Assembly (NCBI GenBank): GCA_028284905.1
Contig: JANQQU010000089.1
Span: forward strand, 1 to 64,000
Direction of reading: 5' to 3'
DNA length: 64,000 bases
Source: Calditrichia bacterium
GTDB taxonomy: Bacteria > Calditrichota > Calditrichia > RBG-13-44-9 > J075
Part shown: piece after piece, positions 4,598-42,706 of the stretch
Layout: the number at the start of each line of letters is the position of its first letter
Position numbering within the stretch: the first letter of the stretch is position 1
The notes under the pieces: generated by a model
Database searches by the model: none
Told to the model about the DNA's origin: nothing
Seen by the model: the letters and a program-made list of their open reading frames with translations, nothing else
Position numbers and translations under genes: made by a program

Positions 4598-8854
<4,257 letters not shown>

Positions 8855-13712: not shown

Positions 13713-14607
13713 AAAACTCTCCTCGTTATGCGTTCATGGTGTATAAAGTAATTCGATTAATGCCCGTGCACCTGTCAAATTGTAATATCATACGTATCCG
13801 GAATTTGGCAAAACGGCCTGCCCATTCTCGCTCCATTCCTGTTCCTGGTCAAGCATTTTAATTGCAGAATGTCAGCAGGTACACTGCTTTCAGCAATTTT
13901 CCCTAATCGCTTATGCGGTTAGGGGAAACAGCAGAAATTCAGGCAGAATTTTCGCTATTTAGCAATTTGAGATTTAACTGTACTGAACAATTCAAACGGC
14001 CGGATGCTTCAATCGGAATTTTAGTGTGGCGATTTTTGGTGGTGGCACCTGAGGAATGGCGGTTACGCGCCTGATTAAGGGTTGCTGTGAATTAACGGGC
14101 TGGGCAGCATCTTTCCTTAAACAATAAACGCCATTGCCGGCAGGGCAAAAAGTCAACTAAAATTCAATCATTTTCATCGCAACAAAACCAGAGGTAGTAT
14201 TAACTCGGGTTGGCTTTTTGTTTTTCGAAGAACCGGGTAAAGGTATGTTTTATAATAGCATGAAGGTTTTTAAAGGCCGTTGATAAAAGTCACCAGCTTA
14301 CTACTTAACTAAATTTTTCACTTAAATTTTTGGCAGTGTTAACATGTAATGCTGAAAATTGTACATGCTGTCATTGCGAGGCGCTTTTGCCGAAGCAATC
14401 TCCAAAAGTGCATACAACGAAGGGATCGCTTCGGCAAAAAAGCCTCGCGATGACAAAGCTGATATCATTACATGTTGAACACTATCAAATTTTTCAATTC
14501 ATATTTTCTGCCCCGCGAAGGATTTTCGAAACATTTTCCAGCAAGATTTGGTAGCATTAGCAACGACTTATTACCCAATGGTTTCATCACCAACCCCCGG
14601 GAGTGCC
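13713..14607. other. Long intergenic region (895 bases)
   Basis: No credible gene. It contains the divergent upstream regions of the propeller protein and the permease, a GC hairpin (CCCTAATCGC-TTAT-GCGGTTAGGG, 13901-13924) without a T-run, and a MITE-like element at 14335-14483. A TATAAT box at about 14249 could belong to a promoter of the permease. The rest shows no structure that I can name. Confidence 0.5.
14335..14483. mobile_element. MITE-like element, copy 1
   Basis: A 149-base element with terminal inverted repeats AGTGTTAACATGTAATG on the left and, inverted, AGTGTTCAACATGTAATG on the right. Inner inverted segments are TGTCATTGCGAGGC and GCCTCGCGATGACA, with GCCGAAGC/GCTTCGGC. A related copy with the same AATGCTGAAAATTG left segment lies at 29653-29806. 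The TGTCATTGCGAGG core is known in dispersed repeats of many bacteria. No coding capacity. Confidence 0.75.
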
Positions 14608-16989
14608 ATGCTATCTAATTATATCAAGATCGCTTTGCGGAATTTATGGAAACATAAGAATTATGCGCTAATAAATACGGTCAGCCTTTGTTTGGGCATC
14701 ACCTGTTTTATCCTGATTTTTCTCTACGTCCGGCACGAACTGGGCTACGACAAATATCATCATGATGCGGAAAATATTTATCGCCTGGAAATGCAGAACT
14801 GGGCGGCCACGCCCCTCTCTGTGGCGCCGTATATGCTGGCACATTATCCCGAGGTGGAGGCAGCGGTGCGCTTTTACCGGCCTTCCAATCCGCAAACCTT
14901 CCGCCAGGATGATCGCGCCTTTACCGAACCGGGGCTGCTTTTTGCTGATTCCACAGTGTTCGAGATGTTTAATTACACGCTACTGGAAGGCGATCCGAAA
15001 ACAGTCTTAACCCGTCCAAACACCCTGGTCATCACTGAAGACATGGCCCGGAAATATTTCCCGGACAGTAATACGCCAGCTGGATACCGCAACCCTTTAG
15101 GAGAAAAGCTGCAGATCAATGATGATGAGTTTCAGATCAGTGGTTTAATGGCAAACGTTCCTTACCAATCCCATTTTCGCTTCGACTTTCTTACGTCTTT
15201 CGCCTCGCTAAAATTCCCGGCGGAGAATTTCCGAATTCAATGGCGCATCTCTATCGTTTACACCTATCTGCGGCTCAATCCCAATGTAAATCTTGTTGAG
15301 CTGCAAGAGAAAGTATGTCGCATGTACGAAGAACGGGTAGAGGCAGATTCCGGTCAATATCAGGCGAACTTAAATCCTTTGCTCGATATCCATCTGCATT
15401 CGAATGCGGAAAAAGAGTTGTCGGCAAACAGCAGTATCGCCTATATCTACATCTTTACCAGCGTGGCCATTTTTGTGCTGTTGGTTGCCTGCATCAACTT
15501 TATGAATCTTGCCACCGCCAGTTCGATCAGCCGGGCGAAAGAAGTGGGTATGCGAAAAGTGCTTGGTGCGAAACGTCCGCAATTGATTTTACAATTCCTG
15601 GGAGAGTCTTTCCTGCTCACCTTTATCGCCCTGCTACTGGCGATGCTGCTGGTAGCGTTGCTGCTGCCGCACTTCCGTGATCTATCCGGACTGCCACTCA
15701 CCGCTAATTATTGGGAAGATGGTGTATTGCTCCCACTGCTCCTGGGAGTTTTGACCATCGTCAGTTTATTTGCAGGCAGCTATCCCGCTTTTTACTTATC
15801 CCGCTATCAACCAGTGAAGGTCTTAAAAACAGCCCGTTTTAAAGAATCAGTCAACTCTGGTGTCAACTGGCTGCGAAAAGGGTTGGTGGTTTTTCAATTT
15901 GTCGTCTCGATTGTCTTGATTATCGGCTCCGGCATTATCGTCAGTCAACTGGATCATATTCGGGATATGGATTTGGGGATGAACAAGGACCAGGTGTTGG
16001 TGGCGAGTATGAATCAGGAAGTGCGGGAAAATTATCAGACGCTGAAAAATGAGCTGCTGGCGCATCCGGAAATTTCCCATGTCACCGCTTCCTTTAGCGT
16101 GCCCAGCAAACGAATCATCGTCGAATATCTGCTTCCCGAAGCAACCCCGGAAGATGGATACGCCACCCGCCTGATGCTGGTTGATTTTGATTATGTCGCT
16201 ACTTATGGGCTGAACCTCCTGGAAGGTCATGGATTTTCCCGGGAACTGCTGGGCGATTCTGCGACCGCCTTCATTTTAAATGAAAGGGCAAAAGCGCTAT
16301 TCGGCTGGGAAGATGCATTGCATAAACAAATTAAGTTCCCCGCCTTTGAAGCTGAAGGCAATGTTGTCGGGGTTGTTAAGGATTTCAATTTTGCCTCTTT
16401 ACACTCGGAAGTAGAACCGCTGGTCATCTTGTTGGTGCCTAATACCGGCATGAAGCAGCACCTCTCCATTCGCTTCGAAGCCGGTAAAGTAGATGAGGCG
16501 TTGAATACCTTAAAAAGCACCTGGGCGAAGCTTTATCCCATGCATACCCTCGATTACTTTTTTCAGGATGACAATTTCGCCCGAATGTATCAGGCGGAAA
16601 GCAAGATGAAAGAGATTGTCAGCTATTTTACGATTCTCGCTATCATCATCGCCTGTTTGGGATTATTTGGCCTTGCTTCTTTTACGGTCGTTCAACGCAC
16701 CGGGGAAATTGGCATTCGCAAAGTGCACGGTGCATCGGCGATTGGCATTGTTGGATTGCTGTCTAAGGAATTTATTCTGTTGGTGCTCGTGGCCAATATC
16801 ATCACCTGGCCGATTGCCTGGTATGCGATGGATCAGTGGTTGGCAAATTTTGCCTATCGGGTAGATATCTCCTGGTCGATATTTGCCCTCGCCGGCGGCC
16901 TGGCATTAACGATTGCCTTGCTGACTGTCAGCACACAAGTCATCCGTACAGCATTCGCTAACCCGATAGAAAGTTTACGGCATGAATAA
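14608..16989 (+). CDS. ABC transporter permease, MacB periplasmic core plus FtsX
   Basis: A 793-residue membrane protein of the MacB_PCD/FtsX double-permease kind common in Bacteroidota relatives. N-terminal LRNLWKHKNYALINTVSL with a transmembrane helix; periplasmic core (about 50-270); first FtsX block (about 285-430) with KEVGMRKVLGAKRPQL; a second MacB core; second FtsX block (670-790) with GEIGIRKVHGASAIGIVGL. ATG 14608 is preferred over the in-frame codon at 14548 because GGGAG stands 5 bases upstream and the family begins with M-x-x-x-Y-x-K-x-A-x-R. Such permeases pair with a separate LolD/MacB-type ATPase to move lipoproteins, peptides or drugs. No ATPase gene lies next to it. It converges on a paralogue at 17595-19979. 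Confidence 0.93.
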   Translation: MLSNYIKIALRNLWKHKNYALINTVSLCLGITCFILIFLYVRHELGYDKYHHDAENIYRLEMQNWAATPLSVAPYMLAHYPEVEAAVRFYRPSNPQTFRQDDRAFTEPGLLFADSTVFEMFNYTLLEGDPKTVLTRPNTLVITEDMARKYFPDSNTPAGYRNPLGEKLQINDDEFQISGLMANVPYQSHFRFDFLTSFASLKFPAENFRIQWRISIVYTYLRLNPNVNLVELQEKVCRMYEERVEADSGQYQANLNPLLDIHLHSNAEKELSANSSIAYIYIFTSVAIFVLLVACINFMNLATASSISRAKEVGMRKVLGAKRPQLILQFLGESFLLTFIALLLAMLLVALLLPHFRDLSGLPLTANYWEDGVLLPLLLGVLTIVSLFAGSYPAFYLSRYQPVKVLKTARFKESVNSGVNWLRKGLVVFQFVVSIVLIIGSGIIVSQLDHIRDMDLGMNKDQVLVASMNQEVRENYQTLKNELLAHPEISHVTASFSVPSKRIIVEYLLPEATPEDGYATRLMLVDFDYVATYGLNLLEGHGFSRELLGDSATAFILNERAKALFGWEDALHKQIKFPAFEAEGNVVGVVKDFNFASLHSEVEPLVILLVPNTGMKQHLSIRFEAGKVDEALNTLKSTWAKLYPMHTLDYFFQDDNFARMYQAESKMKEIVSYFTILAIIIACLGLFGLASFTVVQRTGEIGIRKVHGASAIGIVGLLSKEFILLVLVANIITWPIAWYAMDQWLANFAYRVDISWSIFALAGGLALTIALLTVSTQVIRTAFANPIESLRHE

Positions 16990-16995
16990 GTACAG

Positions 16996-17029
16996 TTGAC
17001 AGTTATCAGTGAACAGTTATCAGTTATCA
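16996..17029 (+). repeat. Left 34-bp inverted repeat (GTTATCA family)
   Basis: TTGACA followed by the heptamers GTTATCA, GTGAACA, GTTATCA, GTTATCA. Exact inverse of 17558-17591. Related units also occur at 5776-5855. Confidence 0.9.
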
Positions 17030-17066
17030 ATAAGCTGAGAGTAAAGATAGCTGATCACTGTCTACT

Positions 17067-17432
17067 CTAGTTATTTTGTTTTTTTATTCTGTTGGTTTTA
17101 AGGATCTTGAATAGGATTTTTGAGATTTCATCTGCAGCATTATAGAGGCGATGAAAGGTTGTTGTTTCGATGTAATCAGTATCTTTTAACAGGGATAGCC
17201 AATATTTGGTTTCCAGGCTCTCTTTATAAGCAATGGATATTTTGTAGAAAAAATCGGCTGGAGAAATAGCACCGTTTGCTTCTGCAATGTTAGCACCCAC
17301 GGATGTGCCACTTCGCAATATCTGTTTTGCCAGAACAAATTCTTTCTTTTCTACTATTAGATATTTGTAAAGTTTGACGATTTCTATGGCAAATGGATAA
17401 GCCTTCTCATTAAATATTTTACTCTTAACCAT
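17067..17432 (-). CDS. Four-helix-bundle protein of the 23S rRNA IVS / S23 family
   Basis: A 121-residue, all-helical protein with the family marks YPFAIEIVKLYKYL, KQILRSGTSVGANIAEANG, ADFFYKISIAYKESLETKYWL and a C-terminal LYNAADEISKILFKIL helix. ATG 17432 follows CAGGGGGACGAT and gives the usual family length of about 115-125 residues; the longer frame to 17513 has no support. Relatives occur inside 23S rRNA intervening sequences, as Avd accessory proteins of diversity-generating retroelements and as stand-alone genes of unknown role. Here it is alone between perfect inverted repeats. Probably forms a pentameric bundle that binds nucleic acid, by family analogy only. Confidence 0.9.
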   Translation of the reverse strand: MVKSKIFNEKAYPFAIEIVKLYKYLIVEKKEFVLAKQILRSGTSVGANIAEANGAISPADFFYKISIAYKESLETKYWLSLLKDTDYIETTTFHRLYNAADEISKILFKILKTNRIKKQNN

Positions 17433-17557
17433 ATCGTCCCCCTGTTCAGACAGTAATTGTTCTAATCTCCTTCCTTTTAAACCACCCAACCTAATATTAC
17501 CACAAGGTAGCAATATTCAGAAAATTTCGTTAATTACCATCAGCGACAACTGTTCAC

Positions 17558-17591
17558 TGATAACTGATAACTGTTCACTGATAACTGTCAA
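17558..17591 (-). repeat. Right 34-bp inverted repeat (GTTATCA family)
   Basis: Exact reverse complement of 16996-17029. A further GTGAACA unit continues inward to 17549. Confidence 0.9.
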
Positions 17592-17594
17592 GTC

Positions 17595-19979
17595 CTATTC
17601 ATATCGCAAAGATTTAACCGGATTGGCAATCGCCGCCCGAAAAACCTGATTAATAATGGTCAGCAGCGCAATCGCCAGGGTAATGCCTCCAGCAGCGATA
17701 AATACCCAAACGGACAAATCGATTCGGTAGGCAAAATTTTGCAGCCATTCGCTCATCGCGAAATACGCCAGTGGCCAGGCAACCAGATTAGCGACCAGAA
17801 TGAGCAGCAGAAAATCCCTTGATAGTAAACCAACTATACCGGCAATATTTGCGCCGAGTACTTTCCGGATACCGATTTCCTTGGTGCGTTGCTGTACGAT
17901 AAGCGCGACCAGTCCGTATAAACCGAGTCCGGCGATGACCAATGCGACCACAGAGAAAATCGTAATCAGCAAAGAGAAATTCTGTTCGGCGTTATACATT
18001 CGGGCAACGTGGGCATCCAGAAAGGTGAAATGAAACGGCTGCTCGCTGGCGACCATCTGCCAGTCTCTTTCCAGCGACGCCAACGTTTCCGCCACATTTC
18101 CTGCCCGTACTTTTATATAGACGTTTTCCACCAGATCGGTCATAAACATCGCCAGCGGCTGTATTTCGCTGTGCAAAGATGCGAAATGAAAATCCGCAAC
18201 AACGCCGATTATTTCCCCATCTACCAGGCGCCCGATACGCATCTTTTTCCCCACCGGATTTTCAAAACCGAGCAGCTGTGCCGCTTTTTCATTGATTACG
18301 ATACTTTCCGTGCGGTCTGTCGCAAAAGCTTCGTCGAAGGTTCTGCCTTGTAGCTGTTCGATATCCAGCAACTCGTAAAAGTTGTAGCCAACGCCATAGA
18401 TGTTTGCCACTAAAGGTTCATCATCTTCCTGCCGCCCCTCCGGGAAAATTGGCTGAGAGCCATTGTCTCCGTCCATCATTCCTGAACTGGCACTGACGGC
18501 AATTACCCGTGGATTATCTAACAAGCGCTCCTGCAGACGGCTAAAACGCACATCAGAGCCATCCCGCTGCATATGAAGCGCAATCACCTGTTCGTCATTA
18601 AACCCAAGATCTTTCTGACTGATAAAATCTACTTGCTGACTCATAATTATCGTAGAGGCAATTAAAGCAATCGCGATACAGAACTGGAAAACCAGCAATG
18701 CTTTTCGCACCACACGTCCGCTGGCGCTGGCTTGAAACTTCCCTTTCAATACCTGCACCGGGCGAAAGCGGGAGATAATTAATGCGGGATAGCTACCGGC
18801 AATTACACCGACGATAATCGCAGTGGCCAGTCCGTAAAGATAAAGCGCCAGATAATCTGCACTGCTATTCAGCAGCGCTATACCAAAGTATTCGTTCAGC
18901 CAGGAAAATATTTGTTCCATAAATGCTGCAGCAAGCAGGTAACTGATAACCGCGACTAAAATTGATTCTCCTAAAAACTGGCCCAGTAAGCTATTCTGGC
19001 GGGCGCCGATAGTTTTTCGGATGCCGACTTCTTTCCCCCGGGAAAACGAGAGTGCAGTGGCAATATTGATGTAATTCGCAGCAGCCAGCAGCAGGATAAA
19101 GATCCCCACAACCAGCAGGCTATAAGGCAGCATGGGATTCGCCCCGGCAACATCGGTATTTTTTGGCTCCCCGAGATAAATTTCTTGCAGCGGCTGTAAA
19201 CTCAGCGTGAACCGCCCGGCACGTTCGGGCATATGTCGCTCCAGGAAACCAGCCAGTTTATCCTGCATGGCTTCAGAATTAGTATTATCACTCAGCTTGA
19301 GATAGGTGTGAAATGAAATCCAGGCCCAACTCTCCAGAGTCACCGGATAACCGGTCGGCACACGAAAAGTGGAGAAAGAGACCAGTGCATCGAAGCGTAA
19401 ATGAGAATTTTTTGGTAGTTCGGCGAGAACGCCGGTAACCTGGAGCGCAACTTCATTATTCAGGGTAATCGTTTCCTGCAGTGGATTGCTGTCACCAAAA
19501 TATTTTTCCGCCATTCCCGCAGTTAATACAACGCTATTTGGTTGAAAGAGCGCCGCCTGCGGATCTCCGTATTTCAGCGGAAAATCGAAGAAATTAAAGA
19601 AGGATGAATCCGCATAAACAATATCGTCTTCGAAGAAACTTTTCTCATTGTAGTTTAAAATATCATTCTCGGAAAAACGCAAGCGCAAGAAGGCCTCTGC
19701 TTCCGGATAATCCGCTACCAGCGCTGGTCCCATGGGAGGACTGGACGTCGGCAAATGCCGTCCGCCCTCTCCGCGCACCGGACGTTCATCATAATTTAAG
19801 CGATAGATATTGTCTGCATTGGGATGAAAGCTATCGTATCCCAATTCGTAACTCGAATAGAGGAAAATTACCAAACTACAGGCAAGGCCCAGTGCCAGGC
19901 CAAAAATATTAATAGCAGTAAACCCTTTGTAACGCAACAGGCTTCGCAGGGAAATTTTCAGAAAGTTTTTAAGCATCAT
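17595..19979 (-). CDS. ABC transporter permease, MacB periplasmic core plus FtsX (paralogue)
   Basis: A 794-residue paralogue of the protein at 14608-16989, of the same layout. N-terminal LRSLLRYKGFTAINIFGLALG helix, MacB core (about 50-265), first FtsX block with KEVGIRKTIGARQNSL, second core, and last FtsX block with KEIGIRKVLGANIAGIVGL. Both end in an NP-(I/V)-(E/K)-SLR-x-E tail. GCGGAG precedes the tandem ATGATG start. It is convergent with its paralogue, with the repeat-flanked IVS cassette squeezed between the two stop codons. Partner ATPase not in the window; the substrate is unknown. Confidence 0.93.
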   Translation of the reverse strand: MMLKNFLKISLRSLLRYKGFTAINIFGLALGLACSLVIFLYSSYELGYDSFHPNADNIYRLNYDERPVRGEGGRHLPTSSPPMGPALVADYPEAEAFLRLRFSENDILNYNEKSFFEDDIVYADSSFFNFFDFPLKYGDPQAALFQPNSVVLTAGMAEKYFGDSNPLQETITLNNEVALQVTGVLAELPKNSHLRFDALVSFSTFRVPTGYPVTLESWAWISFHTYLKLSDNTNSEAMQDKLAGFLERHMPERAGRFTLSLQPLQEIYLGEPKNTDVAGANPMLPYSLLVVGIFILLLAAANYINIATALSFSRGKEVGIRKTIGARQNSLLGQFLGESILVAVISYLLAAAFMEQIFSWLNEYFGIALLNSSADYLALYLYGLATAIIVGVIAGSYPALIISRFRPVQVLKGKFQASASGRVVRKALLVFQFCIAIALIASTIIMSQQVDFISQKDLGFNDEQVIALHMQRDGSDVRFSRLQERLLDNPRVIAVSASSGMMDGDNGSQPIFPEGRQEDDEPLVANIYGVGYNFYELLDIEQLQGRTFDEAFATDRTESIVINEKAAQLLGFENPVGKKMRIGRLVDGEIIGVVADFHFASLHSEIQPLAMFMTDLVENVYIKVRAGNVAETLASLERDWQMVASEQPFHFTFLDAHVARMYNAEQNFSLLITIFSVVALVIAGLGLYGLVALIVQQRTKEIGIRKVLGANIAGIVGLLSRDFLLLILVANLVAWPLAYFAMSEWLQNFAYRIDLSVWVFIAAGGITLAIALLTIINQVFRAAIANPVKSLRYE

Positions 19980-32195: not shown

Positions 32196-32218
32196 TTGCC
32201 CATTTGCCCATTTGCAAA
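32196..32218. repeat. GCAAATGG octamer repeat (inverse orientation)
   Basis: TTGCCCATTTGCCCATTTGCAAA: 2.5 units of an 8-base repeat, the reverse complement of the longer array at 42616-42648. It lies in the 240-base gap between divergent genes. Confidence 0.6.
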
Positions 32219-42572: not shown

Positions 42573-42615
42573 AATCTGTTATTTGATTTTTTGTCAGCCA
42601 GGTATTTAGCTATCA

Positions 42616-42648
42616 TTTGCAAATGGGCAAATGGGCAAATGGGCAATT
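42616..42648. repeat. GCAAATGG octamer array
   Basis: Four successive copies of an 8-base unit GCAAATGG (last incomplete) in the gap between permease and ATPase genes. The inverse of 32196-32218. Tandem copy number may vary between strains. Confidence 0.7.
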
Positions 42649-42706
42649 AATAGAGAAGAATAACTGGCTTAATGATCGTCTAAATATTTTTTGTCCAATT
42701 TCTTTT

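What the first reader, a model, noticed from the sequence alone, without database searches (positions are those of the whole stretch)
16996..17591. Four-helix-bundle (IVS-type) gene framed by 34-bp perfect inverted repeats of heptamers
The two ends are exact reverse complements made of GTTATCA/GTGAACA units, and the only gene inside is an S23/IVS-family protein. The unit fills the gap between the stop codons of two convergent permease genes almost exactly. This looks like a minimal mobile or repeat-dependent cassette whose helical protein may act on the repeats. That link is my inference; the structure itself is visible.
Basis: partly seen in the sequence, partly recalled or inferred. Interest (0 to 1): 0.8.

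Follow-up and report, generated by a model that had tools for sequence, protein, structure and literature searches.

The report
Mobile four-helix gene between heptamer arrays
A 0.6-kb piece of DNA holds one small helical-protein gene between two mirror-image runs of seven-letter repeats; most genes of this protein family checked here are framed the same way, each with its own repeat word, which suggests a very small, widespread and little-understood kind of mobile DNA.

Summary
In detail: a perfect 34-bp inverted repeat of GTTATCA/GTGAACA heptamers (16996-17029 / 17558-17591) brackets one PF05635 (S23/IVP) gene between two convergent permeases. The underlying idea holds in a stronger form. Of 140 IVP genes compared, 67% lie between matching inverted flanks, against 1.4% of other ORFs in the same loci and 0.3% of 601 ORFs in this genome. 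The unit is nearly always 7 or 8 bases, and its sequence is private to each element lineage. In 864 kb of this genome the only tandem arrays have period 7 or 8, and 80% match the ends of the genome's own IVP genes (10% for IVPs of other genomes). Filled and empty sites exist in Nostoc plasmids, with loss of target DNA. The closest IVP, on a cyanobacterial plasmid, carries nearly the same array. The protein is under purifying selection. I read this as a small mobile element related to the IVS of 23S rRNA, whose pentameric protein probably acts on its cognate arrays. Binding and the chemistry of movement are inferred.

The parts
16996..17029 (+). Left inverted array: TTGACA + GTTATCA GTGAACA GTTATCA GTTATCA (3' array in the sense of the gene)
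   Evidence: perfect complement of 17558-17591
17046..17066 (.). Degenerate heptamers between the stop codon and the left array
   Evidence: 71% match to the array units
17067..17432 (-). PF05635 / TIGR02436 four-helix-bundle (IVP, S23) gene, 121 aa from the ATG; GGGGGA ribosome-binding-like stretch just upstream
17545..17591 (-). Right inverted array (5' array in the sense of the gene); outer 34 bp pair perfectly with the left arm
14548..16989 (+). Left neighbour, MacB/FtsX permease, ends 6 bp before the left arm
17595..19979 (-). Right neighbour, MacB/FtsX permease, ends 3 bp after the right arm
5778..5850 (.). Orphan inverted pair of the same heptamer family without an IVP gene (F 5778-5805, R 5823-5850)
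   Evidence: L064 1979-2006 F and 2024-2051 R

Best explanation
The unit is one copy of a widespread class of very small mobile elements, an IVS-type element outside rRNA: two inverted arrays of about five 7-mers (or 8-mers) around a single PF05635 four-helix-bundle gene. Each element lineage has its own repeat word. The element inserts between genes, at gene ends and sometimes inside genes, replacing some target sequence and often supplying the neighbour's stop codon. The protein, probably a pentamer as in solved relatives, most likely binds its cognate repeats, perhaps one unit per subunit, and helps host enzymes copy or re-insert the arrays. Dispersed arrays without a gene would be its non-autonomous derivatives. 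Shown: architecture, generality, lineage-specific repeats, matching dispersed arrays, filled and empty sites, purifying selection. Inferred: protein-array binding, movement in trans, chemistry of insertion.
For: 67% of 140 IVP genes have matching inverted flanks against 1.4%, 0.1% and 1% in three controls, and periods are 7 or 8. Only 2 of 601 ORFs of this genome reach the threshold, the window IVP being the strongest. Only period 7/8 arrays exist in 864 kb, and 80% match the ends of the genome's own IVPs against 10% for IVPs of other genomes. Filled and empty sites at a methyltransferase gene and between cas2 and cas1. The Euhalothece IVP (about 70% identity) has the window's array with four transitions in the same unit order. 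dN/dS 0.03-0.23 in most copy pairs. Solved relatives 2RLD and 2GSC hold five chains, and arms have about five units.
Against: No transposition or binding is shown. No near-identical copy pair limited to the element was found in one genome; the one near-identical pair is a block of about 1.9 kb. Orphan pairs have arms no better matched within a site than between sites. Two of nine own IVPs lack period-7/8 arrays (L033, L035). In other phyla only 6 of 17 loci reach the inverted-repeat threshold. Similarity of arrays follows protein identity only at close range.
Confidence: 0.66

Rival explanations
1. The arrays serve RNA rather than DNA: they form the terminal stem that RNase III cuts, so that the insertion is excised from transcripts as in 23S rRNA IVS; the protein acts on that RNA and mobility is incidental. 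It can be true together with the best explanation.
For: The element folds into a long terminal stem, z-score -8.9. The Coxiella IVS has a 28-bp terminal stem, is cut by RNase III and carries tandem heptamers before the S23 ORF (PMC4990558). Elements sit inside operons, for example between cas2 and cas1.
Against: A stem for RNase III does not need tandem 7/8-mers, nor the same word dispersed at 50-100 other sites. Orphan pairs show no site-specific matching of arms.
Confidence: 0.25
2. Retro-mobility: the protein works like the DGR accessory protein Avd and lets a host reverse transcriptase copy the element's RNA back into DNA.
For: PF05635 resembles Avd (PMC10053308). IVP and RVT_1 counts correlate weakly (rho 0.35).
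Against: Eleven genomes with four or more IVPs have no RVT_1 match, among them the single-contig genomes G017 and G008. No reverse transcriptase lies in the element.
Confidence: 0.1
3. A resident REP-type Y1 transposase recognises the hairpins formed by the inverted arrays and moves them; the IVP protein is a helper or a passenger.
For: Y1_Tnp is in 33 of 40 genomes and correlates with IVP number (rho 0.60).
Against: The correlation is no stronger than with genome size (rho 0.59), and G001, G018 and G025 have two or more IVPs but no Y1 match. Arrays of quite different sequence would all have to be substrates.
Confidence: 0.08
4. The arrays are ordinary host repeats or regulatory signals (slippage products, terminators, translational sites as proposed for TAACTGA), and IVP genes merely happen to lie beside them.
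For: GTTATCA arrays mostly lack an IVP. A regulatory role was proposed in Beggiatoaceae (PMC4679880).
Against: IVP flanks match each other left to right in 67% of cases but not between loci (1%), and other genes show no such framing. Array words of a genome match the ends of its own IVP genes. There is no clear preference for convergent gene pairs.
Confidence: 0.06

Closest known systems
Intervening sequences (IVS) of bacterial 23S rRNA with an S23p ORF (Coxiella, Leptospira; PMC4990558)
   Same: One S23/PF05635 ORF, about 0.45 kb, complementary ends that form a stem, tandem heptamers next to the ORF in Coxiella, low G+C, sporadic distribution.
   Different: Not in rRNA; ends are arrays of several units on both sides; same-word arrays dispersed in the genome; excision from RNA not tested.
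TAACTGA heptamer arrays of Beggiatoaceae, Cyanobacteria and Bacteroidetes (PMC4679880)
   Same: The same heptamer (TAACTGA is a rotation of TGATAAC), mostly intergenic; horizontal spread and a mobile repeat-binding protein were suggested.
   Different: Described as direct repeats with no protein identified and no IVP gene mentioned; here mostly inverted pairs and tied to an IVP gene.
GGGAATC heptamer arrays of Xanthomonas and Nostoc (PMC4692102)
   Same: Dispersed heptamer arrays, often as close convergent pairs in Xanthomonas.
   Different: Studied as G-quadruplex formers; no link to IVP genes made; not tested here.
MITEs and REP/REPIN elements
   Same: Short, inverted ends, many gene-less copies beside few gene-bearing ones.
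   Different: No transposase in the gene-bearing form; ends are 7/8-mer arrays whose sequence differs between lineages; target loss rather than duplication at the junction resolved.
Avd of diversity-generating retroelements
   Same: Homologous four-helix-bundle fold according to PMC10053308.
   Different: No reverse transcriptase or template and variable repeats next to the gene.

Membership tests
PF05635 / TIGR02436 (23S rRNA IVP, four helix bundle protein) | score above the curated cut-off | tested here: met
   97.7 bits against 33.8; 107.6 against 24; solved relative 2RLD at 5e-32
23S rRNA intervening sequence (IVS) | S23 ORF between complementary ends | tested here: met
23S rRNA intervening sequence (IVS) | located in helix 9, 25 or 45 of a 23S rRNA gene | tested here: not met
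   lies between two permease genes; none of 20 other IVP loci matched rRNA
23S rRNA intervening sequence (IVS) | excised from RNA by RNase III | not testable with these tools
   a stem is predicted; no RNA data
Insertion sequence / MITE | encodes a transposase, or has the ends of a resident transposase-bearing element | tested here: not met
   the only gene inside is the IVP gene; the repeat family's only other internal gene, in L075, is an unrelated membrane-like protein
Insertion sequence / MITE | target-site duplication | tested here: inconclusive
   none seen; the methyltransferase site shows target loss; the window copy has no empty site to compare
Insertion sequence / MITE | filled and empty sites | tested here: met
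   met for relatives in Nostoc and Anabaena plasmids; not testable for the window copy
Diversity-generating retroelement (Avd) | reverse transcriptase with template and variable repeats beside the gene | tested here: not met
   no RT beside the gene; the genome's RVT_1 match is on another contig
TAACTGA heptamer repeats | tandem TAACTGA units, mostly intergenic | tested here: met
   GTTATCA arrays at 52 other sites, mostly intergenic

The most novel reading that the evidence does not exclude
S23/IVP four-helix-bundle genes with inverted 7/8-mer arrays form a separate class of mobile element without a transposase or reverse transcriptase: a pentameric repeat-binding protein whose specificity co-evolves with a private repeat word and which spreads dispersed arrays in trans across many phyla. 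The rRNA IVS and the orphan heptamer arrays of Cyanobacteria, Beggiatoaceae and Xanthomonas would be its by-products.
Probability: 0.42. Interest if true: 0.92.

Novelty: new variant of a known kind. Interest (0 to 1): 0.82.

Why it matters
The function and origin of S23 proteins and of the IVS have been called unclear for over 25 years (PMC4990558), and orphan heptamer arrays in several phyla have no accepted origin (PMC4679880). A rule that ties each IVP gene to its own repeat word gives both a common explanation and direct tests. If the protein drives the spread of repeats without a classical recombinase, it is a new way for DNA to move, with a protein-to-repeat specificity that can be read off many natural variants.

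Tried and rejected
The same 34-bp end on all IVP genes: rejected, the other eight IVPs of the genome have other ends. Orthologous empty site for the window copy: not possible, the permeases have no ortholog above about 41%. Searches for close relatives of the protein in genome contigs and viral contigs gave one distant hit and none. A link of GTTATCA arrays to IVP genes in viral contigs: 1 IVP in 120 loci, with a different heptamer. Matching of arms within orphan pairs: no better than between sites. Recent copies inside one genome: the only near-identical pair is a large duplicated block. Reverse transcriptase or Y1 transposase as a required partner: not supported. IVP loci inside 23S rRNA: none in 20 tested. 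Terminator role between convergent genes: sites are convergent, tandem and divergent alike. Open-access literature searches found no report of the IVP-array association; subscription papers and preprints could not be searched.

Full report
OBSERVATION. The perfect 34-bp inverted repeat is real and at the stated coordinates. The arms consist of heptamers of the form GTNNNCA, mainly GTTATCA and GTGAACA. The right array is longer than the left and continues to 17545. The enclosed gene is a clear member of PF05635/TIGR02436. Alignment with homologues places its start at the ATG at 17432. The element is A+T-rich (35% G+C against 46% for the window). Both neighbours are paralogous MacB/FtsX permeases, a family with 66 matches in this genome, so their similar gene ends add a few base pairs to the stem by coincidence.

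THE REPEAT IN THIS GENOME. The genome (8.55 Mb, 93 contigs) has dozens of arrays of the same heptamer family. At the 52 other sites read, the units belong to one family of GTNNNCA words. Thirty-one sites have an F array followed by an R array, 21 have a single array, and none has the opposite order. Most sites are intergenic, and many arrays begin on the neighbour's stop codon, with GTGAACA or GTGATCA supplying TGA (the reading of the stop codon is mine). None of these sites holds an IVP gene; one (contig C54, L075) holds an unrelated 138-aa gene. Relatives in the same family have zero or one hit. The literal prediction that this end marks IVP genes is therefore wrong.

THE GENERAL RULE. The genome has nine PF05635 genes. 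The other eight have no GTTATCA arrays, but most have inverted arrays of another word: GAACTCT, ATTCCGC, CAAATGGG, GATGAGCA or TTAGGGG-like units. The same holds for plasmid-borne IVP genes from Cyanobacteria, Bacteroidota, Spirochaetota and Chloroflexota. I tested this on 140 IVP genes with usable flanks, from 40 genomes of the phylum, from plasmids and one other contig. The left 300 bp and the reverse complement of the right 300 bp align with a score of at least 16 in 67% of cases. The controls are 1.4% for 70 other ORFs in the same loci, 0.1% for shuffled flanks and 1% for a left flank paired with the right flank of another locus. The best period of strongly periodic flanks is 7 (60 left, 55 right) or 8 (18, 20), with few exceptions. 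Among 601 ORFs in 864 kb of this genome only two reach 16, and the window IVP is the strongest. In 17 loci from other phyla the best period is mostly 7, but only six reach the inverted-repeat threshold. Elements with strong repeats span about 470-790 bp (median 552), with about five units per arm (median 5.4 for 7-mers, 4.9 for 8-mers).

COGNATE ARRAYS. In 864 kb of this genome a scan for tandem arrays of period 4 to 12 finds only periods 7 and 8, and none in a shuffled control. At a slightly looser setting, 80% of 41 arrays share an 11-mer with the flanks of the genome's own nine IVP genes; for nine random IVPs of other genomes the mean is 10% and the maximum 37%. Exact counts in the whole genome are 128 for CAAATGGGCAAATGGGC and 17 for GAACTCTGAACTCTGAA, with 0 for the reversed-pattern controls; overlapping matches in one array count more than once. 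The repeats that surround the IVP genes are thus the dispersed repeats of this genome.

MOBILITY. Three Nostoc plasmids carry the element inside a DNA cytosine methyltransferase gene that is intact in three other plasmids. Homology stops and resumes within a few bases of the outer array ends, and about 330 bp of the gene is missing. In Anabaena and Nostoc the element lies between cas2 and cas1, which abut in two other plasmids; the tail of cas1 appears replaced. At the methyltransferase site the intact gene has a CAATTCG word next to the junction, the same word as in the array; this is a lead only. Several IVP pairs share sequence over the element but not outside it, for example L278 and L280 with identical AATTCGT arrays in different gene contexts. 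The closest relative of the window protein found is on a Euhalothece plasmid (about 70% identity, against 53% for the best in its own phylum), and its upstream array is the window's array with four transitions in the same unit order. Gene and array therefore seem to travel together between phyla.

THE PROTEIN. PDB 2RLD (E 5e-32) and, weakly, 2GSC are the solved relatives, and each entry holds five chains. dN/dS between copies is 0.03-0.23 where it could be estimated, apart from 0.37 for a pair that includes a broken copy, so the protein matters to the element. IVP domains are mildly basic (median pI 8.6; window protein 9.5). Array similarity follows protein identity only at close range, so the repeat word changes quickly.

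MECHANISM. Shown: a bracketed single-gene unit, its insertion, its private repeat and the dispersal of that repeat. Inferred: that the pentamer binds the repeat and promotes its spread. Insertion with loss of target, and tandem ends with no fixed terminal sequence, fit copying or repair by host enzymes better than a classical transposase. Reverse transcriptases and Y1 transposases are absent from several genomes with IVP genes, although many of these genomes are drafts. The RNA of the element folds into a long stem, so RNase III could remove it as it does the 23S rRNA IVS (PMC4990558). That could be why insertions in operons are tolerated.

KNOWN WORK. Coxiella's IVS has tandem heptamers next to its ORF (PMC4990558). 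TAACTGA repeats, the same word as here, were described without a protein, and a mobile repeat-binding protein was offered as a possibility (PMC4679880). Xanthomonas GGGAATC arrays in inverted pairs were described as quadruplex elements (PMC4692102). I found no paper that joins S23/IVP genes in general to inverted 7/8-mer arrays, within the open-access library. I therefore rate it a new variant of a known kind (the IVS), with a fair chance that it is a separate class.

LIMITS. The sample is one phylum, plasmids and a few other loci. Empty sites come only from plasmids. Orphan pairs show no site-specific matching of their arms. There are no binding, RNA or transposition data.

Noticed in passing
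L075 1655-2383 (own genome, contig C54): A heptamer-array pair of the window's family brackets a different gene, a 138-aa protein with a hydrophobic C-terminal stretch, again filling the gap between two gene ends (PHP-like gene and RtcB). Possible cargo capture by the arrays.
   Followed up: partly
window 5352-5399, 32198-32214, 42614-42650: Orphan arrays of other words (GAATTCG heptamers; CAAATGGG octamers) that resemble the ends of other IVP genes of the same genome.
   Followed up: partly
L276, L277, L279, L280, L281, L283: Plasmid IVP genes often sit inside defence or modification operons (between cas2 and cas1, after DISARM drmD, between helicase and methylase genes).
   Followed up: no
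L035 (own genome, C13:100914-101225): This IVP gene is bracketed by a much longer inverted repeat (score 112) of a larger repeated unit, not by 7- or 8-mers.
   Followed up: no
L367, L393, L358: A few IVP loci have arrays of other period (9 or 10, such as AAAGTGACT), so the 7/8 rule has exceptions.
   Followed up: no
window 14548-16989 and 17595-19979: The genome has an unusually large family of MacB/FtsX permeases (66 matches to one of them; 38 in the relative G003).
   Followed up: no
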